Assembly: GCA_015075175.1 (NCBI GenBank)
Contig: JABTUV010000004.1
Location: 1 to 64,000, forward strand
DNA from: a bacterium
GTDB lineage: Bacteria > Hinthialibacterota > Hinthialibacteria > H5-UNCL2
Direction of reading: 5' to 3'
Length of the DNA stretch: 64,000 nt
A model generated the notes under the pieces. That model was not told the DNA's origin. It worked only from the letters and a program-made list of their open reading frames with translations, and made no database searches. Of the stretch, positions 3,043-60,593 are shown piece after piece (position 1 is the first letter of the stretch; every line of letters begins with the position of its first letter). Made by a program: the position numbers and the translations under genes.

Positions 3043-3220
3043 GGGAATTCTCCCTGTGAAAAGAGCATCGTCGGCAAGATGGCGAGCATTGCCTGAGACT
3101 AGCCCGATCCGCCCGGACCGTCAACCGGCATGGCACGGCGTCCAGCCGCAAAAACTTACGGCTTCCGGCGCCGATCCACGTAGGTTCGCCGCTTAGTAAG
3201 CCACCGCCAGCCCAACGTCT

Positions 3221-3399
3221 CTGTCATTTCGACCGAAACTCCTTATCATTTCGACCGAGACTTCCTGTCATTTCGACCGAAACTCCCTGTCATTTCGACC
3301 GAAACTCCCTGTCATTTCGACCGAAGGGAGAAATCTTCCGCCTCGCACTCAACCCGCCGTACCGGCGGGAAAGATTTCTCCCTTCGGTCGCAATGACAG
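3221..3399. repeat. dispersed palindromic repeat with tandem head copies (copy A)
   Basis: Five head-to-tail copies of a 22-base unit beginning TGTCATTTCGACCGAA (from 3222) run into a larger inverted repeat whose arms read TTTCGACCGAAGGGAGAAAT and its complement, closed by a 35-40 base variable loop. The same family recurs at 12325-12442, 48170-48328, 51247-51342 and 60356-60513. It lies in the 500-base spacer between divergent genes. Confidence 0.85.
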
Positions 3400-3461
3400 C
3401 CTTGTCGGCGAGTGTAACAAATTGAATCTGCACCCATGACACGGCGCTTCCCCCGCGCGGC

Positions 3462-12117: not shown

Positions 12118-12324
12118 GAGAACCTCCTTGTCTGGGGCGCCGGGAGCGCGCCGGGCGCGACGCTGCCTGGAAATGACTGCGACCATGCTGTGCCCGGCGG
12201 CCGGGAAAATCAACCGCGCTTTTCCGTTGCGTGCATCCGCAGAGATTCACGGCTGCAAACCGCGCGGAACTACCCCAGGCGTTCGTTGCAGTTTCGGTAA
12301 AGTCGCCACGTCCCTTCCATCGAA

Positions 12325-12442
12325 GCACGCTGTCATTTCGACCGAAGCACGCTGTCATTTCGACCGAAGGGAGAAATCTTCCCCCCCGCCATCGCGGACC
12401 GGCTGCATGGCGGAAGATTTCTCCCTTCGGTCGAAATGACAG
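12325..12442. repeat. dispersed palindromic repeat (copy B)
   Basis: One extra head unit (GCTGTCATTTCGACCGAAGC) precedes the full inverted repeat, whose arms lie at about 12351-12378 and 12411-12441. The sequence upstream (12240-12300, GGCTGCAAACCGCGCGGAAC) resembles that at 60300-60345, so the repeated block is larger than the palindrome alone. Confidence 0.8.
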
Positions 12443-12658
12443 CTGCGATGCCGTGACAGCTGCGATGCCGTGACAGCTGGGATGCCGGGACAGCTGGGAT
12501 GCTGGGACAGCTGGGATGCCGGGACAGCTGGGATGCCGTGACAGCTGCGACGCCGTGACAGCTGCGACGCCGTGACAGCTGCGATGCCGTGACAGCTGCG
12601 ATGCCATGACAGCTGCGATGCCGTGACAGCTGCGATGCCGTGACAGCTGCGACGCCGC
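12438..12658. repeat. 17-bp minisatellite, 13 copies
   Basis: Thirteen uninterrupted 17-base units based on GACAGCTGCGATGCCGT run from 12438 to 12658, with a few substitutions per unit (GGGATGCCGG and CGACGCCGT variants). The first unit shares its GACAG with the end of palindromic repeat copy B, suggesting the array grew out of that element. There are no variable spacers, so this is not a CRISPR array. Confidence 0.9.
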
Positions 12659-24235: not shown

Positions 24236-24409
24236 GTGTATTTCCCCTCTCCCTGAGGGAGAGGTCGGCGCGAAGCGCGTTCTTCACCTCTCCCTTGAGG
24301 GAGAGGTCGGCGCGGAGCGCCGGGTGAGGGGGAAGGTCGCCTAAAGCGCGCCGCATCGATGCAGCGCGTTCTCCCCAAGCTCCCCCTCACCCTAACCCTC
24401 TCCCCAGGG
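24236..24409. repeat. GC-rich tandem array, left part
   Basis: One unit of the array described at 25753-26490: CTCTCCCTGAGGGAGAGG, GTCGGCGCG...CGCCGGGTGAGG, and the palindromic GCCGCATCGATGCAGCGC core (about 24350). The array is interrupted here by the IS4-family element. Confidence 0.8.
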
Positions 24410-25752
24410 GTATATGCGCTAACTTAAGTTGGAGAGAAGGCGAAGTGGGGTCGTTGCGCCATCTGTCGTTGGCGGCGGCGCGGGGGATCGCACAAGAAGC
24501 GCCCCAGCCGGGGCATCTTGCGTTGCAGCAGCGGCAACGTGATGGCGCCTTTCACCGTGCTCCGCAGCCAGTCCAACCAGAGGGCCTCCATCCGCCATGG
24601 GCTAAGCCGCTTCTGCGGAAAGGGGGAATCCCCAGGGAAAAAAAGCCAACGCCCCCCGTCATCTCCTCCACGATCACTGCCCCCAGTAACTTGCCAAACA
24701 CATAGGTACGGGCGAGATTCTCATCCTTGGCCCGCACATGGTCCAGGTGGTGGAGGCCCTTCAAGCGCTTGAACTCCATCTCGATCTGCCAGCGGAAGCG
24801 GTACAACTCCAGCGCCTGTGTCGCCGACAGCCCGTCTCCGCCAAGTCCGTGACGACCATCACGTAACCGGCCGCCCGTAAAGATCTCGGGTCCGGGGTAC
24901 GCCCCTTGCGCCTGGCCTCCTTCTCGATCTCTTCGCGCTCGCACTCCGCAGCTGGCGCGGACTTCTTAATCACAATCATGCGCATCGGAAAGCGATCCCG
25001 ACCATCCTCCACCACCACCGGCCAGTCTCCCACTTCGCCGTCCCCCACGAGGCTCATCAGGGCGATCGTATCCACCTTCTTTCCCCGCGCGCTCTTCAAT
25101 GGCAGATTCTGCCAATGCCCGCGCACCACCACATGCCCCTGTTGGCGAAGAATCGATGCGATTCCCGCGCCATGCGCGTAGCCGCGATCTCCCAGAACAA
25201 TCTCTCCTGCCTGCACCCGATGGCGCTTAAAGGTCTCTCCCCGGACGCGTCGGTCAGTTCCAGCGCGGAGAGCCGCTGCCCAGCCAGGTCAAAACTGGCG
25301 TGCAGGCGCAGGTCCGTGCCTTTACTGCCCGGGCGTTGAATCGTGGTCGCGTCCAGGATGCGCACCTGGCAGCCCGGTACTTGGCGTGTCACGCCCCGCT
25401 TTTGCAGCATCTGCAGAACCAAATGGCCCAACCGCCACTCCGACGCATGCCGCAAGCGTTTGAGGATCGCCACGTCCGACAGTTCCCCAAGCCCGGCCAC
25501 GGTGCTCCACGCCGCCAACTGGCGCAGTGACATGTCGCATAGGCTGTACCCCAGGCAGAGGCGCAACAGGTCCTCCGCGCTGGAAATCCGGCGCCTGCGC
25601 ACCAATGCTAACTTTTCTTCGCAACTGGCTTCCAGGTCTCCCGGCAGCAGGCTCAGCACATGCCGCCACTCTTCATTGATTAGATCTGTATTTTCCATGC
25701 AGCCAGCCTACCACTGCGCCGGCTTGCTGTCAATTCATTGTTAGCGCAAATG
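24410..25752. mobile_element. IS4-family insertion sequence, about 1,343 bp
   Basis: Ends are imperfect inverted repeats: TATATGCGCTAAC at the left (24411-24423) and CATTTGCGCTAAC (reverse complement) at the right. CCCCAGGG occurs on both sides (24402-24409 and 25753-25760), a probable 8-bp target duplication. It encodes one transposase on the minus strand. It sits inside a GC-rich repeat array, splitting one repeat's CCCCAGGG palindrome. Confidence 0.85.
24424..25698 (-). CDS. IS4-family transposase, frameshifted
   Basis: A DDE transposase of about 425 codons in at least three frame segments. It begins MENTDLINEEWRHVLSLL. The first catalytic Asp is in VRILDATTIQRPG, the second in EIVLGDRGYAHG, and the glutamate lies in the YREK-type motif LYRFRWQIEMEFKRLKGL that marks the IS4 family. 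The C-terminus (ITLPLLQRKMPRLGRFL) ends at 24424 just inside the left inverted repeat. Frame breaks lie near 25200, 24850 and 24600. The target duplication is still visible, so the insertion is fairly recent; the breaks may be sequence errors or true inactivation. Confidence 0.85.
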
Positions 25753-26490
25753 CCCCAGGGAGAGGGACCGAACCTCCCCAGGGAAGGGAACTGCACCCTC
25801 CCTGAGGGAGAGGTCGGCGCGGAGCGCCGGGTGAGGGGGCAGGTCGGCGCGCGCCGCATCGATGCGGCGCGTTCGCCGGGGAGAGGGCACCTTTCCCCTG
25901 AGGGAGAGGGAACTGCACCTCTCCCTGAGGGAGAGGTCGGCGCGCAGCGCCGCGTGAGGGGAAGTCGCCGCCAGCCCGCCGCATCGATGCAGCGCGCTCT
26001 CTCCCTTCCCCCTCACGCCCTCCCCAGGGAGAGGGACTCACCTCCCCGGGAGAGGGAACTGCACCTCTCCCCTCTGAGGGAGACGTCGGCGCGTAGCGCC
26101 GGGTGAGGGGAGTCGCCCGAGCGCGCCGCATCGATGGAGCGCGCCTCCTCAGCTTCCCCTCATTCTAACCCTCTCCCCAGGAGAGGGGGACCGAACCTCT
26201 CCCGGGAGGGAACCGCACCTCTCCCTGAGGGAGAGGTCGGCGCTTGCCGGGTGAGGGGGGTCGCCGCGCCGCATCGATGCGGCGCTCTCTCCCACGCCCC
26301 TCTCACCTAACCCCTCCCCTCTCCCCAGGGGGACCGAACCTCCCCGAGGGAAGCCTCCCTGAGGGGAGAGGTCGGCGCGAAGCGCCGGGTGAGGGGAAGG
26401 TCGCCCAAAGCGCGCCGCATCGATGCAGCGCCTCTCCCCACGCCCTCATTCAACCCTCCCCCAGGGAGAGGGACTGGGGGAGAGGGAACT
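25753..26490. repeat. GC-rich tandem array of about 125-150-bp units, right part
   Basis: About five units, each with CTCTCCCTGAGGGAGAGG, the block GTCGGCGCG-x-GCGCCGGGTGAGG and a palindromic core CGCCGCATCGATGC(A/G)GCGC. The ATCGAT cores lie near 25857, 25982, 26131, 26273 and 26418. With the piece at 24236-24409 it forms one array split by the IS4 element. A solo relative lies at 56643-56740. No real coding frame is present in this stretch. Confidence 0.85.
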
Positions 26491-27984: not shown

Positions 27985-30593
27985 ATGCCCAGGCCCCTGT
28001 CCGCTCCAGTCGAGACGCCCATTACCAAGGAGACCTACTGCGCGGGATGGCGCGGCTGCTGCCGTCGCACCGCGCGGGCGATTCCGGCCTGGAGACGGCC
28101 GCCAGATCGCGCGCCTGTCGGACGCCTGCCTCGCTTCTGCCTTCCAACGGGCGCTGGAGCAGGCCCCCGCCGTTGCCGCCCAGTGGCTGGCGGTCGCCCC
28201 TCGGCGGGTACGGCCGCCGCCAGTCAATCCCTGCTCCGACCTGGATATTCTCATCCTGCATCGCCCTGGCTACAGCGAGGAGGAAGAGGCGGTGATGAAG
28301 GCCTCTTCCACCAGTTGTGGGACATGGACCTTGGTTAGCCACTGACCCGCACGCCCGAGGACTGCGAGCGGGTCGTGGAGGAAGACCACGTCACCACCAC
28401 GGCGCTCCTGGAGCATCGCCTCCTCTGCGGCTCGCGCGCCATCTTCGAGGAGTTCCAGCGCAGGTTCTTCGACGCCCTGTCCGGACCGCGACTGGAGCGG
28501 TTCCTGGAGGCCAAGTTGCGCGAATTGGACGAACGTTGGCGGCGCTTCGGCTACGCCATCAACGTGGCCCAGCCCGACCTCAAGCTCTCGCCCGGCGGCC
28601 TGCGCGAGTACCACTTCGCCCTGTGGGTAGCCCTGGCCCGTTATCGCGCCCCCGGCTTGGAGCCGCTGGTCGAGCGCGGCGTGCTCTACCGAGGGCAACT
28701 GGCCGACTATGAGCGCGCGCTCGATTTCATTCTGCGCATGAGACACGAATTGCACTTCTGCGCCCGCCGTCCCACCGACCAGCTGGTCTACGAATGGCAC
28801 GAGCCGGTCGCGCAGGGCCTCGGCTACCGCGACGAGGGCCACGTGCTGGCCGAGGAACGCATGATGCGCAATTACTTTCGCGCCGCCCACCATCTTTATT
28901 CGCTCTCCCAAGTCGTCGCCAGTCATTGCCGGCACGCCGAAAGCGAGAGAACCACCGTCGTCTGCCGCGATCCCCGCGTGCCCGAAGGAACTGTCATCGC
29001 GGGCCGCGAGGTCATGCTGCCCGATCGCTTCTGGAACCTCCAGTCCAGTCCCATGCGGCTGTTTGATTTTCTGGAGTTCATGCACGACCATCCCGACCTG
29101 GCGCTCTCGGGAGTGAGCCGCTTTCGCGCCAGTGAAGCCGTGGCGGGCTTCGACTCGACGCTGCGCCTGCGCTCGCCGGTGGGCCAGCGGTTCTTGGCGC
29201 TGCTCTCGCCTCCCGTCGGCGCGGGGCGCAGCCTGCGTCTCATGCAGGAACTCGGCCTCCTGGAGCGGCTCATGCCTGCCTGGAAACGCGTGCGCAACCT
29301 CGTGCGGAAGGACCTCTACCATCATTACGCCGTGGACGAGCATCTGCTTCTGGCCGTCGAACTCTTGGAGAACATCCCGGAAGCCGCCGGACCCGAGGAG
29401 GCGCGCCTGGCCCGCCTCTGGAAGGCCGTCCCGCGCCGCGACCTCCTGCGTTTGGCGGTTCTCCTGCACGACGTCGGGAAGGGAAGCGGCAAGGACCACT
29501 CCCTCGAGGGGGCCTTCGTCGCCGAGCGTTTCGCCCGCGCCCTCGGCCTCTCCCAGCCCGAGAGTGCGCTGGTCAAGTGGCTGGTGGAAAACCACCTGCT
29601 CATGGGCGAACTGATCCGCAGCGCCGACCTTTCCTCCCACGACGTGCTGGTGGAATTCGCGCGCAAGGTCAAAAGCCAGGATTCTCTCGATCTGCTTTAT
29701 CTGCTTACTTACGTTGACATTCGCGCCGTGGCGCCCGGTATGATGACGGCCTGGAAGCTGTCACAGTTGGATCGACTTTACCGCAACGCCACGGAGCTCC
29801 TCTCCGCGGAACAGGTTCCCTCGCGCCAGGAGACCCGCGGGCGGCGCATCCAGGGCCTTCTGGAGAATCTCCCCGAGGGCGTCGAACTGGAGGTCCTGCA
29901 CAAGCACCTGGCCAACCTGCCCAAGGATTACGCCCTCTACACGTCGCCGGCCCTGGTCGCCCGGCACATCCACGCCGTCTCCCAGCATGCGCCCGGTTCC
30001 CCCGTTGTGCGCTTCTCCGGCAACGGCCACACCGAACCTCTCGAGATCATCGTCGTCACCGAGGACCGCATCGGGCTATTTTACCTCTTATGCAGCGCCT
30101 GCCTTTCCGAGAATCTTTCCATTCACGATGCGCGCCTCGATCACTATGACGACAACCTGATTCTGGATACATTGTACTGTTTTGCGCGTCCCGAGGGGAC
30201 GGTCATGGAGGGGAACGGCTGGCATTGGTGGAAGAGAAGATACGGCGCAACCTGGCGCGCACGCAGTTGCCCCTGGTGCAACGACCGGCGCCCGTCGCGG
30301 CCGTGGGAAAACGGGGCGTGCGCTTCAAGTTCCGCATGGGCGTGCGCTTGCGAAACGACATCTCGCGCGACTTCACCGTGCTGGAGGTGCGCACCCTGGA
30401 CCGCATGGGTCTCCTGCAGGCCATCGCGGGCACCCTGGTCCAATTCAACTGCAACATCCGCTTCGCCCGCATCAACACCGAGGGCCTTCGCGCCACGGAC
30501 TCGTTCTATATCACCGACCGCGAGGGCAGGCGCATTGAGGACTCCGCCCGCTTGAAGGCTTTAACCTCCGCGCTGGAGGAGATCCTCTCCTAA
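27985..30593 (+). CDS. glnD: [protein-PII] uridylyltransferase / uridylyl-removing enzyme, frameshifted
   Basis: A bifunctional nitrogen sensor that uridylylates PII under nitrogen limitation and removes UMP when glutamine is high. The nucleotidyltransferase core is LGGYGRRQSIP(x)SDLDILILHRPG (read from two frames, about 28205-28270), followed by the GlnD-specific LKLSPGGLREYHFALWV. An HD domain carries LLHDVGKGSGKDHSLEG. Two C-terminal ACT domains follow (EDRIGLFYLL and VRTLDRMGLLQAIAGTL). The long central segment 28375-30225 is one clean frame; breaks lie near 28050-28350 and 30225. Length of about 870 codons fits the family. The exact start is uncertain because of N-terminal frame breaks. 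No glnB or glnA is adjacent. Confidence 0.88.
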
Positions 30594-31935: not shown

Positions 31936-32125
31936 CACAGTGTGGTAATCGTGCGGAATGTAACTTCCGTCCTCCAGGTCCACGCGCTCCACCAGCCCGT
32001 CCAAGTCGTAGGTGTACTCGAACGAGGCAAACTCCTCCCCCGTCGCACTCTTGTTGCGCAGCGCCGTCAGGTACCCGTAAGTCTCGTCGTACTCGTATTC
32101 CACGTAAGCCCCGTTCTCCAGCTCT
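31936..32125 (-). pseudogene. Rhs core remnant (third copy)
   Basis: The minus strand encodes ENGAYVEYEYDETYGYLTAL, then a stretch ending VDLEDGSYIPHDY. The same block occurs within the Rhs-A core at about 35975-36125 with high nucleotide identity. It has no start, no toxin and no partner, and stops just before the URO-D gene. It is the distal scrap expected at the end of an array of displaced Rhs cassettes. Confidence 0.8.
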
Positions 32126-32178: not shown

Positions 32179-32928
32179 TCAGTCAACAACTAAGAGCGGC
32201 TCAAAGTACGCTCCACGCAGTTTCAACCGCTCATATTCAGACTTGAATCTCGAAGTAACGATCGTTATCCAACCCGCCTCGGCGCGAAAGATATCGAGTT
32301 GGACATTTGCGACCTTGCGGCGATAAAGCACGCGCCGCTTGGCCAACACCGTTCCGCCCAACCCGCACGCGCTGCACGGCGTGTATCTGCTGTACGACGC
32401 AGGCGCCAGCACGTCGTAATACGGTGAACTCAATTCCACGTACTTCCAAGGAAGCGCCCACTTTGAGCTTCCGGAAACAACATCGCATGGAACTGCAACA
32501 GGCAGGCGAAGCCCCGCTGATGTCAAGGCTTCGACCACGCCGGCATCGATTATGAAGCCGATCCCGATTCCGTCGAAGCACAACTCCACTGGCCTGCCGC
32601 GAGTCTTTCCTGCCAAGCTCCCAAACTCGACTCCCGGCACGATTAGTTCCGGAGGGACGACTCCCGCAAGCGAAGTCCGTATCTCGCAAAGCCGGTCCCA
32701 ACTCACCGCAATCGGCGAGTCTGGGGTCCTCGCAATTATCGCAGCCTGGGGAAAATTTCGAAGGTCCATTTCTGGAAAGACCCGCCCGGTCGCAAAACCA
32801 CGACGCCCGCAGGCAGGGCATTTCTCCAATACGGGAACTGTCCACGGTCGCATTGCGTTATGGAAGCATCCGCGGTCGATCAGCTCACCGTCGCCGCGCA
32901 ATTGATAGTAGTGGACTGCGTTCGTCAC
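32179..32928 (-). CDS. double-CxxCG-motif protein, probable immunity protein for the Rhs-A toxin (SitI6-like)
   Basis: A 249-residue soluble protein (MTNAVHYYQLRGDGELIDRG). It has two CxxCG zinc-type motifs, CPACGRRG (about residue 37) and CSACGLGG (about residue 187), the layout of the SitI6 / double-CXXCG immunity family paired with SitA6-type toxins in Myxococcus. It starts 12 bases after the stop of the toxin-domain frame, on the same strand, exactly where an immunity gene is expected. It has no signal peptide, fitting a cytoplasmic antidote. It is intact although its toxin gene is interrupted. Family assignment is from motif memory; immunity function is inferred from context. Confidence 0.75.
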   Translation of the reverse strand: MTNAVHYYQLRGDGELIDRGCFHNAMRPWTVPVLEKCPACGRRGFATGRVFPEMDLRNFPQAAIIARTPDSPIAVSWDRLCEIRTSLAGVVPPELIVPGVEFGSLAGKTRGRPVELCFDGIGIGFIIDAGVVEALTSAGLRLPVAVPCDVVSGSSKWALPWKYVELSSPYYDVLAPASYSRYTPCSACGLGGTVLAKRRVLYRRKVANVQLDIFRAEAGWITIVTSRFKSEYERLKLRGAYFEPLLVVD

Positions 32929-32940
32929 GCATGTTTCCTT

Positions 32941-33375
32941 TCAAAATGGAGATCCGCCAAACTCCTCTACCATCTCATCCCAGGTGCACTGGATGAATGC
33001 CTCGATTTCATCCTTGCTCGCGCCTCCCCTGTGCTCATCGATGAACTCCCTCCACGCACGGTTCCAACGGCCGCCCCTTCCCCCTGTCCCGTCTCCAAAG
33101 TGAATAAAATCGTTAAACTCTTTTGATACTCCCACGCAATAGTCGTCCACGTTAATTCCGCTCTTGTCGAACCAGTTGATATAGAACTCATTGCCCCTGA
33201 ACTCGGGCGTGAGGTGGTGTTTGATCTGGCCAGGCTTCAGATCCGCTTTGACGCCGCTCTTCTTTGCCCACGTCAGGGTGCAGCGAAGCCCGCCTTTCGC
33301 TCCCTTCTTCCCGACACCTTCTAGTATTTCGCGTCCGATCAACGTGCAGGCCTTCGCGCCCCCCTTGCATGCAAG
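32941..33375 (-). CDS. C-terminal toxin domain of Rhs-A (SitA6/DUF2380-like), detached by IS insertion
   Basis: About 133 residues from LIGREILEGVGKKG to the stop at 32941. It contains IKHHLTPEFRGNEFYINWF, KSGINVDDYCVGV, HFGDGTGGRGGRWNRAWREF and EAFIQCTWDEMVEEFG. This order (HH, a GI(N/D)xDD strand, IHxGDGxGG-WNxxWR, then an AxxMxxxFG helix) is that of the SitA6/TIGR02269 (DUF2380) polymorphic toxin domain; the His residues suggest a nuclease-like metal site. In the present sequence it lacks its own start and is separated from the Rhs core by IS copy 1. Conceptual removal of the IS joins it in frame to the core. Confidence 0.75.
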   Translation of the reverse strand, partial: LACKGGAKACTLIGREILEGVGKKGAKGGLRCTLTWAKKSGVKADLKPGQIKHHLTPEFRGNEFYINWFDKSGINVDDYCVGVSKEFNDFIHFGDGTGGRGGRWNRAWREFIDEHRGGASKDEIEAFIQCTWDEMVEEFGGSPF

Positions 33376-34753
33376 GGGCGTGCCCCCTGTAAACTTTACC
33401 AGTGGGAATGTTAGGATCTCCGGTCAACAGGAGGTCCAAGATGAAGAGGAGTTTGCGGTACAACGAGGAGCAGATCATCCGGATTCTGCGGGAGGCGGAG
33501 GCCAACGGTCGTCTGGTGGCGGAGGTGTGCCGCGCAGGGCATTAGCGAGCAGATCCTTCTACCGCTGGCGTCGGAGTCTCGGGGAAATGAGCGTCCCGGA
33601 GGCCTCGTCGGCTGCGGAACCGGAGCGGGAAAACAGTCAGTTGAAGCGGATGGTGGCGGAGCGGGACCTGGAGATCGAAACGATCATGGGCTGTTAAGAA
33701 AAAGTGGTAACGGCGCAACAGCGTCGCGAGAGCGTGGACTTCGCCGCTGACGCGGCTCTCCTCGAACGACGCGGTTGCGCCTTGTTTGAGATCAGCCGTC
33801 CCGGTTACCACTACCAGCCGCAGCGATGATACGGCCCCTGGCCAGGCGCTTCGCGAGATCGCCCGGGAGCGGTGGGCCGGTTATCGCACCGCCTGGGGAG
33901 TGCTGAGGCTGGAAGGAAGTCATCAACCCCAAACGGGTGCACCGGGTGTGGCGCTGAAGGCTTGTCCCAACCCAGGCGCAGGAAGCGCCGGCGACGTGGG
34001 GAGAGGAGTCCAACCCCCGGGCCGAGTATCCGGACCACGTCCGACCCACGACTTCATGGAGGATGCCACCGCGAAGGCCGCAAACTGCGGGTGCTGACGC
34101 TGGTGGATGAGTACACCCGCGAATGCCCGGTGATCGAAGGGATCGCAGGATGAAGGCCAAGGATGATCCGGTGCTGGAGAGGGTGATGAGTGGGGAGACG
34201 CCCCGCACCCGCGCAGCGACAACGGCCCGGAGCCCATCGCCAAGGCGCGCCTCGACCTGGCTGTCGAAGCGGGGCGTAGAGACACCACATCGATCCGGGC
34301 AGTCCGTGGCAGAATCCCTTCGGGGAGAGCCAACGGGCGGCTGCGGGACGAGTGCTTGAACCTGAACTGTTCCAGAATCTCTTGAGGCGAAGGTGGTCGT
34401 CGAGGAGTGGCGCAAAGATTACAACCTGGCCCGGCCGCACAGCAGCCTGGGTTACCGCACCCCGCGCAGCCCCGTGCCGCCTGGCTGAAGGATGGGGCCT
34501 GGCCCCTGAACCCCGGAGTTTATCGCTTTCCGGCCTCCGGAAGAGGGCCAACAAACGAAAGGCAGGGATGGACGTCCCCTGCCCCTCTCCGTACAGGCAC
34601 CGCCACGGCGCTCGGGTCGCTCCAGCGGGCTCATCCTCCGGGCCGGCAAGAGAACTCTATCACGCGGGAGATGAGGTCGACAACCCGCCCTGGTGGCGGC
34701 ATCATAACCCCGGAGGACTAACATTCCCGTGGTAAACAAAATGGGGCTGGACA
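33376..34753 (+). mobile_element. IS3-family (IS407-type) insertion, copy 1, in Rhs-A
   Basis: 1,378 bases, bounded by CAAG at 33372-33375 and 34754-34757 (4-bp target duplication, as IS407-type elements make). Ends are imperfect inverted repeats: GGGCGTGCCCCCTGTAAAC at the left and, in reverse, TGTCCAGCCCCATTTTGTTT at the right; a shared GGGAATGTTAG follows further in. It is more than 90% identical to copy 2 (37541-38928). It lies between the Rhs-A core and its toxin domain. Confidence 0.9.
33441..34488 (+). pseudogene. IS3-family transposase (orfA/orfB), many frameshifts, copy 1
   Basis: OrfA starts at 33441 (MKRSLRYNEEQIIRILREAE) after AGGAGG, with a helix-turn-helix (ASRSFYRWRR) and a leucine-zipper-like stretch (AEPERENSQLKRMVAERDL). 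OrfB fragments carry the integrase core: AGYRTAWGVLRLEG, the first Asp in LTLVDEYTRECPVIEG, and remnants of the SDNGPE and ES-x-NG-x-LRDE regions. At least six frame breaks beyond any programmed orfA-orfB shift are present, so no full transposase can be made as sequenced. Confidence 0.85.
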
Positions 34754-36801
34754 CAAGGCTTGCGGCGGCTTTGGCCCCGCTCAAGTCAGAAATCGCCATC
34801 GCCACATTAAAAACGAACGACCCGTACTCCTCATTCTGCCAGTTCTCAACCGCATCACGAGCCGGTCCAATGACAGGAATGAACCCAACAATATCCTCCC
34901 AGAATCCAGGCTTGTCTTCGGAGAGCCCCGTCAAATCGAGGAACATTACGGGATTGTTCGACGAAAACACGTACAAGTTGGAACCCTCGAATAATTCAGC
35001 GAAAACCGACGGATCCCCACTAATGAACCGCCCGAGTGCCGGCGCGTACCAACGCGCTGCGAAGTCATAAAGCCCCAAATCGGGATCGTACTGCTTGGCG
35101 GTGAGGCGACGTGAGGTTTTCACCAAGGCATCCGTAGGAACACCAAACGCATCGCAGGAATAACGACATCCTGCCAACAGCGATCCGCTGCCGCCAGTGA
35201 GCCCCGCGACGTCTCCCAGCCAACTGTAGTGAAAATACGTGTCCTCCTTTTCGGGGTTACTCGACGTATATGGTGTTGAATAGGTATAAAGGGTCTCCTT
35301 GTGAATCCGACCAACGTCACCGGGAGCGGTATACGTCACCCTCTCTGTCCGGTACGGATCCCCCTCGTCCAGTCCGTCCTGGTCCGAGTCGTACTTCTCA
35401 TCCACGCGCAACTGGTCTAGCCCCAGCGTCTCGTAGCGCAGCCATTTCGTCAGCGTCCAGTCCGGCGTCTCGCCGGTGCTCCAGTTGTCGTTCATGTATA
35501 CAACCTTCTGCGTCCGGTTGCCCCCGCACGCGGGACAGTAGTAGAACTCCACCCGCTTCCACGGCCGCAGATAGAGAAAGCCGGTATCATTGTACACCTT
35601 CCAATGCACGACCTGGATCAGCCGGTTTTCGTGGTCCCAGCTGTAATCCCAGCGCGCCATGGTCTCCCACCAACTCATCATGTCGGGATCGAACAGTTCA
35701 TCCTTGCGAGTCAGGTTCCCATTCAGGTCGTAGCTGTACTCCTCCTTATACCCGTCCGTCCCATCGTCCCACTCTCGCAGCGTCAGTTGATTCAGGTCGT
35801 TGTACGTCAGCGTGAACGTGGTCGCGTTGCTCACATCGTCCGTATGAATATGCTGCGTGCGATTGCCCGCGTTATCATACTGGTACTGATGGCGATAAAC
35901 GGTTGCCGCGCCGCTGGTTTTCTTCCACTCATCCGTCAGCCGGTTCTGGTTGTCGTAATCGTAAAGGATGTACGAATTGTCCTCCAAATCCACGCGCCCA
36001 CCAGCCCGTCCAGGTCGTAAATACTGAACGACGCAAACTCCTCCCCGTCGCGCTCTTGTTGCGCAACGCCGTCAGGTACCCGTAAGTCTCGTCGTACTCG
36101 TATTCCACGTAAGCCCCATTCTCCAGCATGACGGTCTCGACCGCCCCCGCCGCATCGAACGAATAACTCGCCAAAGGCAAGACCCCGTTATCCTGATACA
36201 CGCCCACTACGCGCTGCGCCATATCGTAACTGTAACTCAAACTGGTCTGCTTTTCGCTCTCTTTCATCCAGCTCAAGGTCTTCGTCCGCCCCATCGCGTC
36301 CCGCTGAAAGGAGATGCTCCCATACCCCACGCCCGACCGATACTGCAACCGCCCCAGTTTATCATAGCTGTAATGCACCTGCTCGCTGCATCCCCACGTG
36401 CAGTCCGACACAATGCTCGCCAACTGCCCGGCACTATTATACGCATACTCGACCGTCCCGCTCTGCGTCTGCCCGGTATAATACTTCTTCTGCGTCAACT
36501 TCCCCAAGAGATCATACGCGAACTCGGTTTTCGCCCCGTTGCAGTCAGTAAACGAATCCACCCGCCCCCAGGCGTCGTAATGGTACAGCTCGCCGGCGTC
36601 CGCGGTCGCATCGTCGCCGTAGAAGCTCCGCTGCGTCATGCGCCCCCAGGCGTCGAACTCGTACCCGATCCACTGCCCCAGCGCATCCGTCACGCTCGAC
36701 AACTGCGGCCCGTACTGCAACCGCCCGTAGCCATACGCCGTCGTCACCCCCTCGATCACATCTTCAGACCAGGTACACGCTCGAACATTTTTGGCGAGCG
36801 T

Positions 36802-37188
36802 TTATTCAAGTTCATGCCAGTCTGCAAACGAAAAATACGGTCCGAGCCCCATAGATTGCTGCTCATGCGTGAACACCATCGTCCACTCAAAATTAGCTTG
36901 CGTGATATACATGTCAATGGGTATCCCGGCCCCCGCAATAAACGTCCGTGCTTTCTCAACCGATGGCAATCTCCCCAGGCACTTAAGCACTCCGAGCGCC
37001 ACTTCGCCGACAAATACATAATACTCCTCGGCGTTCTTCAACCGAGTATATTCCTCTTCGGCGCGCGCACCCCGCAGGCAACGCGCGTGCCCATGGGAAA
37101 AAATGTGCCATGCAAAATCCCCGTGGACCCATTTTCCCTTCGCTCGGAGATTGTGCGCCGCAAAAACGCGACGCCAATGCAACCTCAC
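36802..37188 (-). CDS. DUF4275-like protein, probable immunity protein for the Rhs-B toxin
   Basis: About 128 residues. It reads WRRVFAAHNLRAKGKWVH, FAWHIFSHGHARCLRG, NAEEYYVFVGEVALGVLKCL, IPIDMYITQANFEWTMVFTH and MGLGPYFSFADW. The WHIFS, DMYI-x-NFEWT-x-THE and GPYF blocks match my memory of the DUF4275 family. It lies 80 bases after the stop of the Rhs-B toxin end on the same strand, the usual place for an immunity gene. The start is unclear: a GTG at 37188 gives this frame, and an AGGAGGTG site lies some 30 bases further upstream. Rhs-A core sequence resumes straight after its TAA stop. Immunity function is inferred. Confidence 0.65.
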   Translation of the reverse strand: MRLHWRRVFAAHNLRAKGKWVHGDFAWHIFSHGHARCLRGARAEEEYTRLKNAEEYYVFVGEVALGVLKCLGRLPSVEKARTFIAGAGIPIDMYITQANFEWTMVFTHEQQSMGLGPYFSFADWHELE

Positions 37189-37540: not shown

Positions 37541-38928
37541 GGGCGTGCCCCCTGTAAACTTTACCAGTGGGAATGTTAGGATCTCCGGTCAACAGGAGGT
37601 CCAAGATGAAGAGGAGTCGGTACAACGAGGAGCAGATCATCCGGATTCTGCGGGAGGCGGAGGCCAACGGTCGTTCGGTGGCGGAGGTGCCCGCAAGCAG
37701 GGCATTAGCGAGCAGACCTTCTACCGCTGGCGTCGGAAGCTCGGGGAAATGAGCGTCCGGGAGGCCTGTCGGCTGCGGGAACTGGAGCGGGAAAACAGTC
37801 AGTTGAAGCGGATGGTGGCGGAGGGACCTGAGATCGAAACGATCAAGGGCTGTTAAGAAAAAGTGGTAACGGCGCAACAGCGTCGCGAGAGCGTGGACTT
37901 CGCCAAGCGACGCGGCCTCTCGAACGACGCGGTTGCGCCTTGCTTGAGATCAGCCGTCCCGGTTACCACTACCAGCCGCAGCGCGACGATACGGCCCTGG
38001 CCAGGCGCTTGGGCGAGATCGCCCGGGAGCGCAAGTGGGCCGGTTATCGCACCGCCTGGGGAGTGCTGAGGCTGGAAGGGGAAGTCATCCCCAAACGGGT
38101 GCACCGGGTGTGGCGCCAGGAAGCGCTTGTCCCAACCCAGGCGCAGGAAGCGCCGGCGACGTGGGAGGAGTCCAACCCCTTGCGGGGCCGAGTATCCGGA
38201 CCACGTCTGGACCTACGACTTCATGGAGGATGCCACCGCGAAGGCCGCAACCGGCGGTGTTGACGCTGGTGGATGAGTACACCCGCGAATGCCCGGTGAT
38301 CGAAGCGGATCGCAGGATGAAGGCCATGATGTGATCCGGGTGCTGGAGAGGGTGATGAGTGGGGAGACGCCCCGCAAGTACCTGCGCAGCGACAACGGCC
38401 CGGAGCTCATCGCCAAGGCGCTCTCGACCTGGCTGTCGAAGCGGGCGTAGAGACACACCACATCGATCCGGGCAGTCCGTGGCAGAACCTTCGGGGAGAG
38501 CCAACGGGCGGCTGCGGGACGAGTGCTTGAACCTGAACTGTTCCAGAATCTTTGAGGCGAAGGTGGTCGTCGAGGAGTGGCGCAAAGACTACACCTGGCC
38601 CGGCCGCACAGCAGCCTGGGTTACCGCACCCCGCGCAGCCCGCGCCGCCTGGCTGATGGATGGGGGCTCTGCCCCGAACCCCGGAGTTTATCGCTTTCCG
38701 GCCTCCCGGAGAGGGCCAACAAACGAAAGGCAGGGATGGACGTCCCCGCCCTCTCCGTACAGGCACACCGGCCACGGCGCTCGGGTCGCTCTCCAGCGGT
38801 TCTATCCTCCGGGCCGGCAAGAGAACTCTATCACGCGGGAGATGAGGTCGACAACTCCGCCCTGGTGGCGGGCATCATAACCCCGGAGGACTAACATTCC
38901 CCGTGGTAAACAAAATGGGGGCTGGACA
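37541..38928 (+). mobile_element. IS3-family (IS407-type) insertion, copy 2, in Rhs-B toxin region
   Basis: 1,388 bases with 4-bp target duplication GCAG (37537-37540 and 38929-38932). Terminal sequences match copy 1 (GGGCGTGCCCCCTGTAAAC at the left; GGGGGCTGGACA at the right). Both copies sit in toxin-coding parts of neighbouring Rhs genes, in the same orientation. Confidence 0.9.
37606..38656 (+). pseudogene. IS3-family transposase (orfA/orfB), many frameshifts, copy 2
   Basis: The better preserved copy. OrfA from 37606 reads MKRSRYNEEQIIRILREAEA, TFYRWRRKLGEMSVREACRL and RELERENSQLKRMVAEGPEI. OrfB pieces give LEISRPGYHYQPQRDDTALA, ERKWAGYRTAWGVLRLEG, LTLVDEYTRECPVIEAD, TPRKYLRSDNGPELIAKAL and RDECLNLNCSRIFEA, so all three catalytic D-D-E segments are recognisable but in different frames. 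IS407-type elements use one programmed shift between orfA and orfB; the additional breaks would inactivate it unless they are sequence errors. Confidence 0.87.
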
Positions 38929-40262
38929 GCAGACGGATGAGGATCATGGTGAATCGGTCGCCTTCCGCCCAACTTCCGTGGCGATTTCACATCAGCAAGT
39001 CTGCGATTCCCCCACAATAACGTCTTCGCCCGCCTTGGCTGCATCGACAACCTCGTCAAATCCCAATCCCTTCTTGATCACCTGAAGCCTCTTATCCCCA
39101 ACACAATGATCTTGCCAACGCCTTTCGTTACCACGTTGAGGCCTTCAAGGTCAATGTAAGTTACAGGATTGTTTAGGCAAACGTATAAAGCGCTTGTCCC
39201 TCCTCCAAGTCCGCAAGAGGGTACTGGTCTCTAGACATCAGCCGGCCTGTGCCAACATCAAACCAACGTCTCGAAAAATAGTAGAGATTTACGTCTAAAT
39301 CGAATTGCTTAGCGGTGATGCGACGTGTTGTTCTCGCGACTTCTCCGACGAATTGGCCAAACGCATCGTGGTGAAACCTTTGATCGCATATGAATGCACC
39401 ACTCGAGTTGCTAAGGGCGGACACAACCATGATCCGATCATAATGATAATAAATATCCTGCTTGTCCGGACTCGCCGCACTATAGGGTGAGGAGTAGGTA
39501 TAAACCGCCTCCATATTGATGTACCCAATACCAGGATAAGCAGTGTATGTCACCCTCTCCGTCCTAAACGGATCCCCCTCGTCCAACCCGTCCTGGTCCG
39601 AGTCATACTTCTCGTCCACCCGCAATTGGTCCAGCCCCAAGGTCTCGTAGCGCAGCCATTTCGACAGGCTCCAGTCCGGCGTGTCCTCGACGGCCCAATT
39701 GTCGTTCATGTAGACGACCTTCTGCGTCCGAGTCCCTCCGCACGCCGGACAGTAGTAGAACTCCACGCGCTTCCACGGCCGCATGTACAACATCCCCGTC
39801 TCATTGTACAACCTCCAATGCACAACTTTAATCAGCCGATTCTCATGGTCCCAACTGTACTCCCACCGCGTCCGCATCTCCCACCAACTCATCATCCACT
39901 CATCGTACAGTTCATCCTTGCGGATCAAGTTCCCATTCAGATCGTAAGTGTACTCCTCCTTATACCCATCCGTCCCATCGTCCCACGTGCGCTCGGTCAG
40001 TTGATTCAGGTCGTTGTACGTCAGCGCAAACGTCGTCGCGTTACTCACGTTGTCGGCGTGTACATGCTGCGTCCGGTTGCCCGGAGAACGGGGCAGGGAA
40101 GAAGGAGACGCGGTCAAAGACACGGCCATGACGTTGGCGCCCGGTACACGGAATGGGTCAGTACGGTGATGATAGTCCCGGAGGCCGGTGTGGCGCAACC
40201 TCTTTTGTGTATCAGTGGTTGGGTTGATTGCATGAAAAACCGGCGGGCGAAAGCGCCTTCAG

Positions 40263-40673
40263 CTACAGACCCAGCGCCGCCGCCAGCGGCTCGACATTCG
40301 CAGGCACGACCGTTGCAGGTTGACTGCCGGCCATCGCCGTCTCCGGGTCCTTCAACCCGTGGCCCGTCACGACCGCGACGACTTGCGCCGGTTGCCGGAA
40401 GAACCCGTCCCGCCCGAGTTTGATCAATCCCGCCACGCTCGCCGCCGACGCCGGTTCTACCGCGATCCCCTCCTCCTGCGCCAACAGCCGTTGCGCGGCG
40501 AGAATCTCCGCGTCCGACACGGCGGCGAAGAGACCCCCCGAGTCCTCCCGCGCCCGTAGGGCCCCCTGCCGGCTGGCCGGATTCCCGATCCGTATCGCCG
40601 TGGCCACCGTCTCCGGGTTCTCGACCGGACGCCCGCGCACCAGCGGCGCCCCAACGTCGGGACGCCGCCACAC
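40263..40673 (-). pseudogene. thrC: displaced 3' part of threonine synthase gene
   Basis: Encodes the C-terminal third of threonine synthase ([20 protein letters not shown] ... ATVVPANVEPLAAALGL, stop at 40263). Bases 40325-40650 duplicate 43447-43770 almost exactly. Only this copy holds the natural last 20-odd residues, and it lacks the PLP lysine region. It is the far side of the thrC gene split by the restriction-modification cassette. Confidence 0.85.
40325..40650. repeat. direct repeat (thrC sequence), left copy
   Basis: About 325 bases, roughly 96% identical and in the same orientation as 43447-43770; the two flank the XamI-type cassette. Differences include several one-base indels (for example CCCC here versus CCC at about 43590). 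Confidence 0.9.
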
Positions 40674-40761
40674 GCCTTAGGAAGCGCGACGGCGCCGTGC
40701 GATGCACTTGACGTTGCACGGTCGATGGGTAATCCTATCGCATTGCCGAAAGGTGGGCCTG

Positions 40762-41721
40762 ATGAAACCTCGACGGATCAACGCCGACAAGCCGCATCTC
40801 TGGAAGGCCGACATCGCCGCGTCCGTGGACCGGTTCAACGAATGGTTCATGAGTTTTGCCCCCGAAGCATTTCGGGCGACGCGGGTGGAGACGACGGAGC
40901 GGGTGAAGCGCGCGATCCTGGCAACCCACGATCTGCGAAACCTCGATGCAGCGACGTTAAGGGCGAACCCGGGGGCGCTGCCGACGCTTCGCATGTGTAC
41001 CGCACCGCCGCTCGCGGTCGACCGCCTGATCGGTTTGGCCTACGCCAGCAAGAATCTGATAGGTCGCATGGAGAAGGGAAAGCTGCCGGCCAAGATGCAG
41101 GGGGTCGAGCTCGACGCCGAGTTGGCGAAAGTCTGCGGCATCATCACGCGGCTCCTGGACCGCGACATCTTCCCCTGGCTCGACCATGGAACGGCTCCAA
41201 GCGGGCACGAGCGCGACCGAGCCTCCACCATCGTCGCCGACCGCTTGTGCAGTGCGGTAGCCAGCCCCATCGTCCGCAACGCGCAGGAGCAGCGCCAGCT
41301 CGCCATGATCGGCGACTATCTCGAAGGGCGGGGCTATCGCAAGCAAGCCCACCCGTCCGGCGCGCCGCTGAACGAGATGGAACCGGGCACGTACTGCCTC
41401 CGCATGAACGTGCCCATCGGGAGAACTCTCAGAGTCAATATTCCGGTCGACGTCGCAATCCAACCGCGACGGCCCCGTAGAGACCATCTGCCGATCCTGA
41501 TCGAAGCCAAGTCAGCCGGGGATTTCACCAACACGAACAAGCGCCGCAAAGAGGAGGCGATGAAGATCCATCAATTGCGGGCGACTTATGGAGAATCGGT
41601 TTGTTTCATACTTTTTCTCTGTGGATACTTCGGCAGCGACTACTTCGGCTACGAAGCTGCTGAGGGAATCGATTGGGTATGGGAGCACCGCATCGACGAC
41701 TTGGCGAAGCTGGGTGTATAA
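40762..41721 (+). CDS. XamI-family type II restriction endonuclease
   Basis: A 319-residue protein. The ATG at 40762 (MKPRRINADKPHLWKADIAA) follows AAGGTGG. The sequence matches my memory of the XamI family throughout: SVDRFNEWFMSFAPEAFR, NPGALPTLRMCTAPPLAVDR, TRLLDRDIFPWLDHGT, RASTIVADRLCSAVASPIVRNAQEQRQL and a PD-(D/E)xK-like segment LPILIEAKSAGDFTNTNKRR, where E-x-K lies in IEAKS. XamI is a SalI isoschizomer, so the predicted target is GTCGAC. The methylase starts 3 bases after the stop on the same strand. The cassette is inserted in thrC. A protective methylase is mandatory for survival if this enzyme is active. Confidence 0.9.
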   Translation: MKPRRINADKPHLWKADIAASVDRFNEWFMSFAPEAFRATRVETTERVKRAILATHDLRNLDAATLRANPGALPTLRMCTAPPLAVDRLIGLAYASKNLIGRMEKGKLPAKMQGVELDAELAKVCGIITRLLDRDIFPWLDHGTAPSGHERDRASTIVADRLCSAVASPIVRNAQEQRQLAMIGDYLEGRGYRKQAHPSGAPLNEMEPGTYCLRMNVPIGRTLRVNIPVDVAIQPRRPRRDHLPILIEAKSAGDFTNTNKRRKEEAMKIHQLRATYGESVCFILFLCGYFGSDYFGYEAAEGIDWVWEHRIDDLAKLGV

Positions 41722-41724
41722 CCA

Positions 41725-43324
41725 ATGATCGCGCGAAACGAAGGCTCCATTGAAGCGCGGCGGCAGGTCATACAGACCGCGCTTGACGCGCGCAAAGCAC
41801 CGGCCGAGAGGAACCGCTTGGGCCAGTTTGCCACTCCCTACACCCTGGCGGTCGACATCGCTGCGTACGTGCAGTCCGTAGCGGGCGGCAATCTTCAAGC
41901 GGTTCGCTTTGCGGATCCCGCCGTCGGCACGGGCAGCTTTTATTCCGCCGTGCTTGCCGTCTTTGGTCGTGAGCGGATCGAGAGCGCGATCGGCATTGAG
42001 CTGGACTCGGACTTTTGCGATGCCGCCCAAAGTCTCTGGTCGGAGTCCGGCCTCGAAGTGATAAGGGCCGACTTCACGCGCGTGGTTGCCAGCGCCCAGC
42101 GGCCCACGGCCCCCAACCTGATCCTGGCCAACCCTCCCTATGTCCGTCACCACCATATTAATCACGAGGACAAGGAGCGCTTGCAGTCGCTTACGCGCCG
42201 CACGACCGGCGTGAAGGTCCACGGCCTCGCCGGTTTGTACGTCTATTTTGTTCTGCTTGCCACGGAGTGGATGACGCCTGGCGGATACGCGGCCTGGTTG
42301 ATTCCGTCTGAATTCATGGATGTCAACTATGGCGCCGCGCTCAAAGAGCTTCTTGTCGAGGCCGTTACGCTGATCCGCACGCATCGCTTCGACCCGGATG
42401 ATGTGCAATTCGGCGACGCCTTGGTTTCCTCCGTCGTGCTCGTGTTTCGCAAGGCGCCCCCTCCGGTGGGACATGCAGTCGAATTCACGTTTGGAGGCAC
42501 GATCCGCGAACCCCACGCCTGCGATAGGATTCCGCTGGAAGTTCTGTGCGATTCGCGCAAGTGGACGGTCTATCCCAGCCATACTCGTAACGACCGTCGC
42601 CTGTCGGGCAACGGCGATGGTCCGACGTTGGGGGATATCTTCTCCATCCGGCGCGGGATTGCGACGGGTAATAACAAGTTCTTCGTGCTGGAGCGCCGTG
42701 AAGCCGAACACTACAACCTGCCAAAATGCTATCTGCGGCCGATCCTGCCCAGCCCGCGGTTTCTGAAAACCACTGTGATCGACGCGGACGACGACGGCTA
42801 TCCTTCTCGAACCTCAACTCTGCATCATCGATCGCGATCTGGCTGAGTCCGTGCTCCAGGCCCAATATCCGGCTTTGTGGAAGTACCTCGAGACTGCGAC
42901 GGCGTTGGGTGTGAAGGACGGGTATCTCGTTGGCAAACGGAGTCCATGGTACCAAACAGGAAGCGGCGCGATCCGGCGCCGTTCCTTTGCACGTACATGG
43001 GACGCGGCGCTGATGAGAAACGCCCCTTTCGGTTCATCTGGAATCGTTCGCAGGCCATCGCGACCAACCTCTACCTCATGCTCTATCCTGAGAACGGCCT
43101 GGAGAAGATGTTGCGACCACCCTGAACGCCAAGCGGATGTATTCAGCTGCTGGGTCAGGTAGCCAGGGCACGAACTGCGTGGGAAGGCCGCGTTTACGGC
43201 GGCAGCCTACAAGATCGAACCCAGCGAATTACCCGCATTTCCGCCGCGCCAATTGTCGAATGCTGGCCGAACTGCGGTCATCCGTGCAGCGGCAGGGGAA
43301 CTGTTTGGCGCAGGGAGAGTGTGA
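41725..43324 (+). CDS. adenine-specific DNA methyltransferase of the XamI/SalI type, frameshifted 3' part
   Basis: Cognate N6-adenine methylase. It has an N-terminal [19 protein letters not shown], the AdoMet motif [15 protein letters not shown] (about residues 62-76), IEL-x-D and the catalytic NPPYVRHHH (about residues 136-144), the Eco57I/SalI-like gamma order. The first 365 residues are in one frame; after about 42800 the frame changes several times ([49 protein letters not shown], then [13 protein letters not shown] to a stop at about 43324). All the expected C-terminal parts are present, so sequence errors are likely; a truly truncated methylase beside an active endonuclease would be lethal. 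It follows the endonuclease gene by 3 bases. Confidence 0.87.
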
Positions 43325-43446
43325 CTCCGCTGGTATGCGGCTGGCTGCGGTGCAAGATCGTACCGCTGGCGTCCCCGCCGGCTTCACCTACACCCTGCGT
43401 TCCCCACCACTGCCTCCACTTCCGCCCCTCACCACCGTCGGCCCTC

Positions 43447-43770
43447 CCTGCCGCCATCGCCGTCTCCGGTCCTTCAACCCGTGCCCGTCACGACCGCGAC
43501 GACTTGCGCCGGTTGCCGGAAGAACCCGTCCCGCCTGAGTTTGATCAATCCCGCCACGCCTGCCGCCGACGCCGGTTCTACCGCGATCCCTCCTCCTGCG
43601 CCAACAGCCGTTGCGCGGCGAGAATCTCCGCGTCCGACACGGCGGCGAAGAGACCCCCCGAGTCCTCCCGCGCCCGTAGGGCCCCCTGCCGGCTGGCCGG
43701 ATTCCCGATCCGTATCGCCGTGGCCACCGTCTCCGGGTTCTCGACCACGCCCCCGTGGACCAGCGGCGCC
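43447..43770. repeat. direct repeat (thrC sequence), right copy
   Basis: Partner of 40325-40650. It is the natural continuation of thrC from the right, ending where the inserted cassette begins (about 43446). Confidence 0.9.
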
Positions 43771-48054: not shown

Positions 48055-48169
48055 TTTGTCCGCAAACGGATCCTTTCCGGCATCGCAAGTGTTTAGGATC
48101 TGCCGCATGACGAGCCGTTGTCCGGCAATTGGGAAGTGCGGGGCGGTCTTTTGCCCTTGGCGGCGCACC

Positions 48170-48328
48170 TGTCATTTCGACCGAAGGGAGAAATCTTCAC
48201 TAGGCCGTCGAAGACGATAGTGGACGTGAAATCGGCGCACTTGGTCATTTCGACCGAAGGAGAAATCTTCATCCTTGCGCTCGACTGGCGGTAATGGGGA
48301 AAGATTTCTCCTTTCGGTCGAAATGACA
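48170..48328. repeat. dispersed palindromic repeat (copy C)
   Basis: Two forward heads (48171 and 48245) and one reverse arm ending at 48328, with spacers of about 45-50 bases. The surrounding 48060-48500 holds no gene that I can recognise. Confidence 0.85.
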
Positions 48329-51130: not shown

Positions 51131-51246
51131 GTCAGGCGACTCCCAGGCTGATAGGGGATGCACGAACCTATCGCAATTGCGGTCGGGAATGAACCCACTT
51201 TTTGGCGCCCCCAAGGTACAGATTCAGTTCTTAGCACTTGCCCCCA

Positions 51247-51342
51247 GAGCTGTCATTTCGACCGAAGGGAGAAATTCAGCATGTGGCGCCCGACGACCGA
51301 GAGACGCCGACTAAGATTTCTCCCTTCGGTCGAAATGACAGG
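51247..51342. repeat. dispersed palindromic repeat (copy D)
   Basis: A single clean palindrome: forward arm at 51248-51275, reverse arm at 51315-51342, 40-base loop, in the 300-base space between divergent genes. Confidence 0.85.
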
Positions 51343-51434
51343 GCACTCGTCCCGCCAATTCCGCTTGTCCGGTTGTGCGGCCTCGTGGTAGGGTTTGGTC
51401 CGTGCCGGACTGCGTCCTGGAGGCTGTCGCGTAT

Positions 51435-56642: not shown

Positions 56643-56740
56643 CGCTGAGGTTCCCCCTCACCCGGCGCTTCGCGCCGACCTCTCCCACGGAGAGGCGAAG
56701 TCCCCTCTGCCTTAGGGAGAGGGTTAGGGTGAGGGGGTGC
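56643..56740. repeat. solo copy of the GC-rich CTCTCCC/GGCGCTTCGCGCC repeat
   Basis: CCCCTCACCCGGCGCTTCGC with CTCTCCC and GGGAGAGGGTTAGGGTGAGG, related to the array units at 24236-26490. It lies between the PhnX-like gene and the hydroxylase operon. Confidence 0.75.
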
Positions 56741-60355: not shown

Positions 60356-60513
60356 CTGTCATTTCGACCGAAGCACACTGTCATTTCGACCGAAGCACAC
60401 TGTCATTTCGACCGAAGCACGCTGTCATTTCGACCGAAGGGAGAAATCTTACCCGCCGCCACCCCGGCTCGAGCCCGCGGCAGGAGATTCCTCCCTTCGG
60501 TCGAAATGACAGA
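60356..60513. repeat. dispersed palindromic repeat with tandem heads (copy E)
   Basis: Four 22-base head units (TGTCATTTCGACCGAAGCAC) precede the full palindrome, whose reverse arm ends at 60513. It is flanked by CACGGCTGCAAATCGCGCG (60300) upstream and ATCTGCACCCGGCAGG (60538) downstream, both resembling flanks of copies A and B. Confidence 0.85.
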
Positions 60514-60593
60514 TCCGCCGTCAAGGGCAAGAAATTCCATCTGCACCCGGCAGGCGCCGGTTGCGCGGAGGCGAGCCGCCGCCGTCCGGAGGG

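What the first reader, a model, noticed from the sequence alone, without database searches (positions are those of the whole stretch)
33372..34757. Removing IS copy 1 on paper recreates an in-frame Rhs-toxin fusion
The IS is bounded by CAAG on both sides. Joining base 33375 to 34758 gives, on the minus strand, one reading frame that runs from the Rhs-A core and pre-toxin segment (AISDLSGAKAAAS) through LACKGGAKACTL into the SitA6/DUF2380-like toxin domain (IGREILEGVGKKG). This shows directly that the detached toxin frame at 32941-33375 was the C-terminus of an Rhs effector, and that one transposition separated shell from toxin while leaving the immunity-like gene intact.
Basis: partly seen in the sequence, partly recalled or inferred. 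Interest (0 to 1): 0.85.

Follow-up and report, generated by a model that had tools for sequence, protein, structure and literature searches.

The report
IS-split orphan Rhs toxin module
A jumping gene has landed inside the tail of an Rhs bacterial-warfare gene fragment and cut its toxin tip off from the Rhs part, while the matching immunity gene is untouched; the insertion is real, but the gene was already a shortened "orphan" copy, so this is a well-preserved example of known biology.

Summary
An IS3-family element at 33376-34753 is flanked by a 4-bp repeat, CAAG. Its ends are confirmed by other copies in the genome: matching 4-bp flanks occur at 5 of 8 insertion places. On the minus strand, the piece before the element ends in an Rhs core plus pre-toxin. 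The piece after it is open up to the junction and matches DUF2380/SitA6. The next gene is an intact SitI6-like immunity gene. A natural, uninterrupted Rhs-core-DUF2380 protein exists in candidate phylum UBP4, so the architecture is real.

The first interpretation needs one correction. The "shell" is not a full Rhs. It starts mid-core right after a DUF4275 immunity gene, its neighbour is also cut at the 5' end, and a third core scrap follows the immunity gene. This is a tandem array of orphan Rhs tip modules like one in a class relative. The IS therefore broke an orphan module, not demonstrably a working effector. The frame break at about 35.99 kb and the battered IS may be long-read errors in repeats. 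Known parts in a known type of locus; low to moderate interest.

The parts
33376..34753 (+). IS3-family insertion sequence, copy 1; transposase reading frames broken as written; transposase strand opposite to the Rhs module
   Evidence: Ends from comparison of genome copies; HTH_Tnp_1 match at 33441-33545; fuller copy at C1:685086-686506 matches IS3 transposase above NCBIfam's cut-off, 243.6 against 160 bits
33372..33375 (.). CAAG, left copy of the 4-bp target-site duplication
   Evidence: Sequence; 4-bp duplications at other copies
34754..34757 (.). CAAG, right copy of the 4-bp target-site duplication
   Evidence: Sequence
34758..35993 (-). Rhs core C-terminal part with pre-toxin segment, module 1, downstream of the frame break near 35,990
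   Evidence: TIGR03696 58.3 bits against a cut-off of 32.5; RHS_repeat
35932..36759 (-). Upstream part of the same Rhs core fragment (RHS repeats), in another frame; starts mid-core, with no N-terminal part
   Evidence: PF05593 75.7 bits; DUF4275 gene directly before it
32941..33375 (-). Detached toxin tip, DUF2380/SitA6-type, predicted nuclease
   Evidence: PF09533 44.7 bits against 26.3; TIGR02269 51.1 bits against 85.75; alignment with SitA6-family tips
32179..32928 (-). Intact SitI6-like double-CXXCG immunity gene
   Evidence: PF09535 72.7 bits against 25; TIGR02264 80.9 bits against 100.15
31969..32122 (-). Third Rhs core scrap, 91% identical to 35979-36127
   Evidence: Self-comparison, alignment
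36802..37188 (-). DUF4275 gene, probable immunity gene of the neighbouring module 2
   Evidence: PF14101 47.5 bits against 27
37541..38928 (+). IS copy 2, with GCAG on both sides; lies behind the stop-bearing tail of Rhs module 2
39164..40084 (-). Rhs core fragment of module 2, 65% identical to the module 1 protein, also cut at its 5' end

Best explanation
This is an orphan Rhs tip module (core fragment, pre-toxin, SitA6-type nuclease tip, SitI6-type immunity gene) in a tandem Rhs array. An IS3-family element inserted once into the pre-toxin segment and left a 4-bp CAAG duplication. Shown: element, duplication, matching phase, families on both sides, intact immunity gene, truncated 5' end, repeated core scraps. 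Inferred: in its unbroken state the module served as a cassette that could supply a new tip to a full-length Rhs gene by recombination in the core, as orphan Rhs tips do in Salmonella. With the IS in place the tip can no longer be read from upstream core sequence, and the immunity gene is left as an orphan defence.
For: IS ends and 4-bp duplications at five places; same phase on both sides; Rhs core, DUF2380 and Gmx_para_CXXCG matches above Pfam or NCBIfam domain cut-offs; a natural Rhs-core plus DUF2380 protein, followed by two CXXC-containing small genes, in UBP4 bacterium UBA6127; known pairing of PF09533 toxins with double-CXXCG immunity proteins (PMC12077181); 5' truncation and repeated core scraps; a tandem array of short Rhs-core-plus-different-tip frames in a class relative; orphan Rhs biology (PMC3967940).
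Against: No relative without the IS is held, so the empty site was not seen. No full-length Rhs gene was found in this genome (84% complete), so a recombination partner is not shown. A T6SS sheath gene was not found either.
Confidence: 0.8

Rival explanations
1. A full-length, working Rhs effector was split by the IS; the missing 5' half was lost later or mis-assembled.
For: The two sides of the IS fit in phase and domain order. The assembly is indel-rich in repeats, and class relatives have open frames of 1,600-2,700 codons at some Rhs matches.
Against: The Rhs fragment begins right after an open DUF4275 gene; module 2 is also cut at its 5' end; a third scrap exists. This is the usual layout of orphan arrays (PMC3967940).
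Confidence: 0.12
2. The detached tip and immunity gene now act as a free-standing toxin-antitoxin pair, started from TTG 33342 and transcribed from within or next to the IS.
For: An open frame of 133 codons starts at TTG 33342, with the immunity gene directly behind it.
Against: No sigma-70-like promoter at the junction (the scan covers only that promoter type); weak start codon; a conserved histidine of the second motif is Asn here.
Confidence: 0.05
3. The two sides were brought together by recombination between two IS copies, so the Rhs part and the tip never belonged together.
For: Several copies of the IS are present, two of them in this array and two places with tandem copies.
Against: Identical CAAG on both sides, same phase, and an independent natural Rhs-DUF2380 fusion.
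Confidence: 0.03

Closest known systems
Orphan rhs-CT/rhsI modules (Salmonella Typhimurium LT2, PMC3967940)
   Same: Core fragment without its own start, toxin tip and immunity gene, further copies in one locus
   Different: Here no main rhs gene was found, and an IS separates core from tip
SitA6/SitI6 toxin-immunity pairs of myxobacteria (PF09533/PF09535; PMC8546572, PMC12077181)
   Same: Same toxin-domain and immunity families, toxin next to immunity gene
   Different: Tip carried by an Rhs core, not by a lipoprotein escort domain; below the SitA6 and SitI6 equivalog cut-offs; one second-motif histidine is Asn
Rhs-DUF2380 protein of UBP4 bacterium UBA6127 (L020/L069)
   Same: Rhs core with DUF2380 tip in one open frame, two small CXXC-containing genes behind it
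   Different: Uninterrupted; tip 31% identical over 65 residues; its neighbours match no Pfam or NCBIfam family

Membership tests
Rhs (RHS repeat-associated core) | Match to TIGR03696 above cut-off | tested here: met
   58.3 against 32.5 bits
Full-length Rhs effector | Complete N-terminal part and shell in one gene | tested here: not met
   Starts mid-core after the DUF4275 gene; frame break near 35,990
Orphan Rhs tip module | Core fragment without own start, tip, immunity gene, several in a row | tested here: met
   a class relative looks the same
Orphan Rhs tip module | A main rhs gene to recombine with | tested here: inconclusive
   None found, but the assembly is 84% complete
DUF2380 (PF09533) | Gathering score | tested here: met
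   44.7 against 26.3 bits, C-terminal part of the profile only
SitA6 lipoprotein toxin (TIGR02269) | Equivalog cut-off, lipoprotein and escort domain | tested here: not met
   51.1 against 85.75 bits, positions 116-189 of the model only; carrier is Rhs
SitI6 immunity (TIGR02264 / PF09535) | Cut-offs | tested here: inconclusive
   PF09535 met (72.7 against 25); TIGR02264 not met (80.9 against 100.15)
IS3 family | IS3 transposase, short target duplication | tested here: met
   Fuller genome copy 243.6 against 160 bits; 4-bp duplications
AHH/HNH-type nuclease | Nuclease fold and activity | tested here: inconclusive
   HH..P motif kept, but the single-sequence model is poor, pLDDT 49; no solved relative by sequence

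The most novel reading that the evidence does not exclude
SitA6-type nuclease tips and their CXXCG immunity proteins, described from myxobacterial outer-membrane exchange, are a wider cassette that moves between lipoprotein and Rhs carriers across phyla, and IS insertion in the pre-toxin is one way such a cassette becomes an immunity-only island.
Probability: 0.4. Interest if true: 0.4.

Novelty: new member of a known kind. Interest (0 to 1): 0.27.

Why it matters
It places a SitA6-type toxin and SitI6-type immunity pair in an Rhs array outside the myxobacteria, and gives a clean case of how an immunity gene can outlive its toxin. It does not change how Rhs systems are thought to work.

Tried and rejected
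Relatives of the tip by sequence: none in 193 held genomes apart from its own, in plasmids, genome contigs or viral contigs. A family alignment was too diverse for a collection scan. Solved structures: two chance-level hits. Structure model too weak to search with. The idea that both IS copies hit the same place in the tips was dropped: copy 2 lies behind the stop-bearing tail of module 2. T6SS sheath gene as delivery evidence: not found. An outward promoter at the IS end: none by consensus scan.

Full report
What is there. The element at 33376-34753 is bounded by CAAG at 33372-33375 and 34754-34757. Sixteen matches to it, whole or partial, lie in the genome. Full-length copies share the ends GGGCGTGCCC and (C/T)TGGACA, and matching 4-bp flanks are found at five of eight insertion places (CAAG, GCAG, GCGG, TATC, and TGAC around a tandem pair); three places show no match. 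The copy at C1:685086-686506 keeps two long transposase frames and scores as IS3 family. The copy in question is broken in many places relative to the others.

The two sides. On the minus strand, 34758-35993 holds an Rhs core and pre-toxin segment (TIGR03696 58.3 bits, cut-off 32.5). The frame at 32944-33375 is open to the junction and matches DUF2380 (44.7 bits, cut-off 26.3) and, below its equivalog cut-off, the SitA6 model. The gene at 32179-32928 matches Gmx_para_CXXCG (72.7 bits, cut-off 25) and, below cut-off, SitI6. Each frame starts a codon on the first base of its own CAAG copy, so the phases agree independently of the IS length.

Independent support. A search of 386 genomes with PF09533 gave a frame in which an Rhs core runs uninterrupted into a DUF2380 tip, with two small CXXC-containing genes behind it. 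The genome is UBP4 bacterium UBA6127. Its tip is 31% identical to ours over 65 residues. The pairing of PF09533 toxins with double-CXXCG immunity proteins is published for myxobacteria (PMC12077181), and the SitA6 alleles tested in PMC8546572 are described as AHH nucleases. In the alignment the HH..P motif and the last histidine are kept in the window tip, while the first histidine of the second motif is Asn. A nuclease activity is therefore inferred, not shown.

The surroundings change the story. The Rhs fragment does not have an N-terminal half. Its repeats begin near 36,759, directly after a DUF4275 gene that is a probable immunity gene of the next module. That next module has its own Rhs core fragment at 39164-40084, 65% identical and also cut at its 5' end. 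A third scrap at 31969-32122, 91% identical to 35979-36127, lies behind the SitI6-like gene. A class relative carries a similar layout: at least four short frames in a row, each a similar Rhs core with a different tip, some with small genes between. Open frames at some Rhs matches elsewhere in the class reach 1,600-2,700 codons. This fits orphan rhs-CT modules as described in Salmonella (PMC3967940). No main rhs gene was found in this genome, which is 84% complete.

Caution about the assembly. Differences between the two IS copies in the window are mostly indels (82 against 21 mismatches), as are those between the two threonine synthase copies (10 against 3). The frame break near 35,990 lies in a repeated stretch. 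Residual long-read errors in repeats are a plausible cause, so the decay of the IS and the frame break should not be over-read. The junction-flanking sequences are unique and open over long stretches.

Verdict. The insertion and the Rhs origin of the tip are confirmed. The claim that a complete Rhs effector was split is not; an orphan module was split. The parts are known families in a known kind of locus.

Noticed in passing
window 40324-43770: A XamI-type restriction gene (40702-41721) and an Eco57I-like methylase gene (41725-42846) lie between two copies of a stretch of a threonine-synthase-like gene (40324-40650 and 43448-43770, 96% identical), as if inserted with a long target duplication.
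   Followed up: partly
window 28375-30593: A glnD-like gene changes frame near 30.2 kb, another sign of possible indel errors.
   Followed up: no
window 3214-3434, 12315-12447, 48151-48328, 51215-51343, 60356-60533: A dispersed, partly palindromic repeat family.
   Followed up: no
window 12437-12657: A tandem array with a unit of about 17 bases.
   Followed up: no
window 24242-26475: Several related repeats of about 100-130 bases, with a relative at 56651-56717 on the other strand.
   Followed up: no
L064, L066: The same IS occurs as tandem head-to-tail copies on C49 and C23, one copy of each pair being truncated.
   Followed up: partly
L055: Another RHS-repeat gene on contig C23 without a recognisable Rhs core end.
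   Followed up: no
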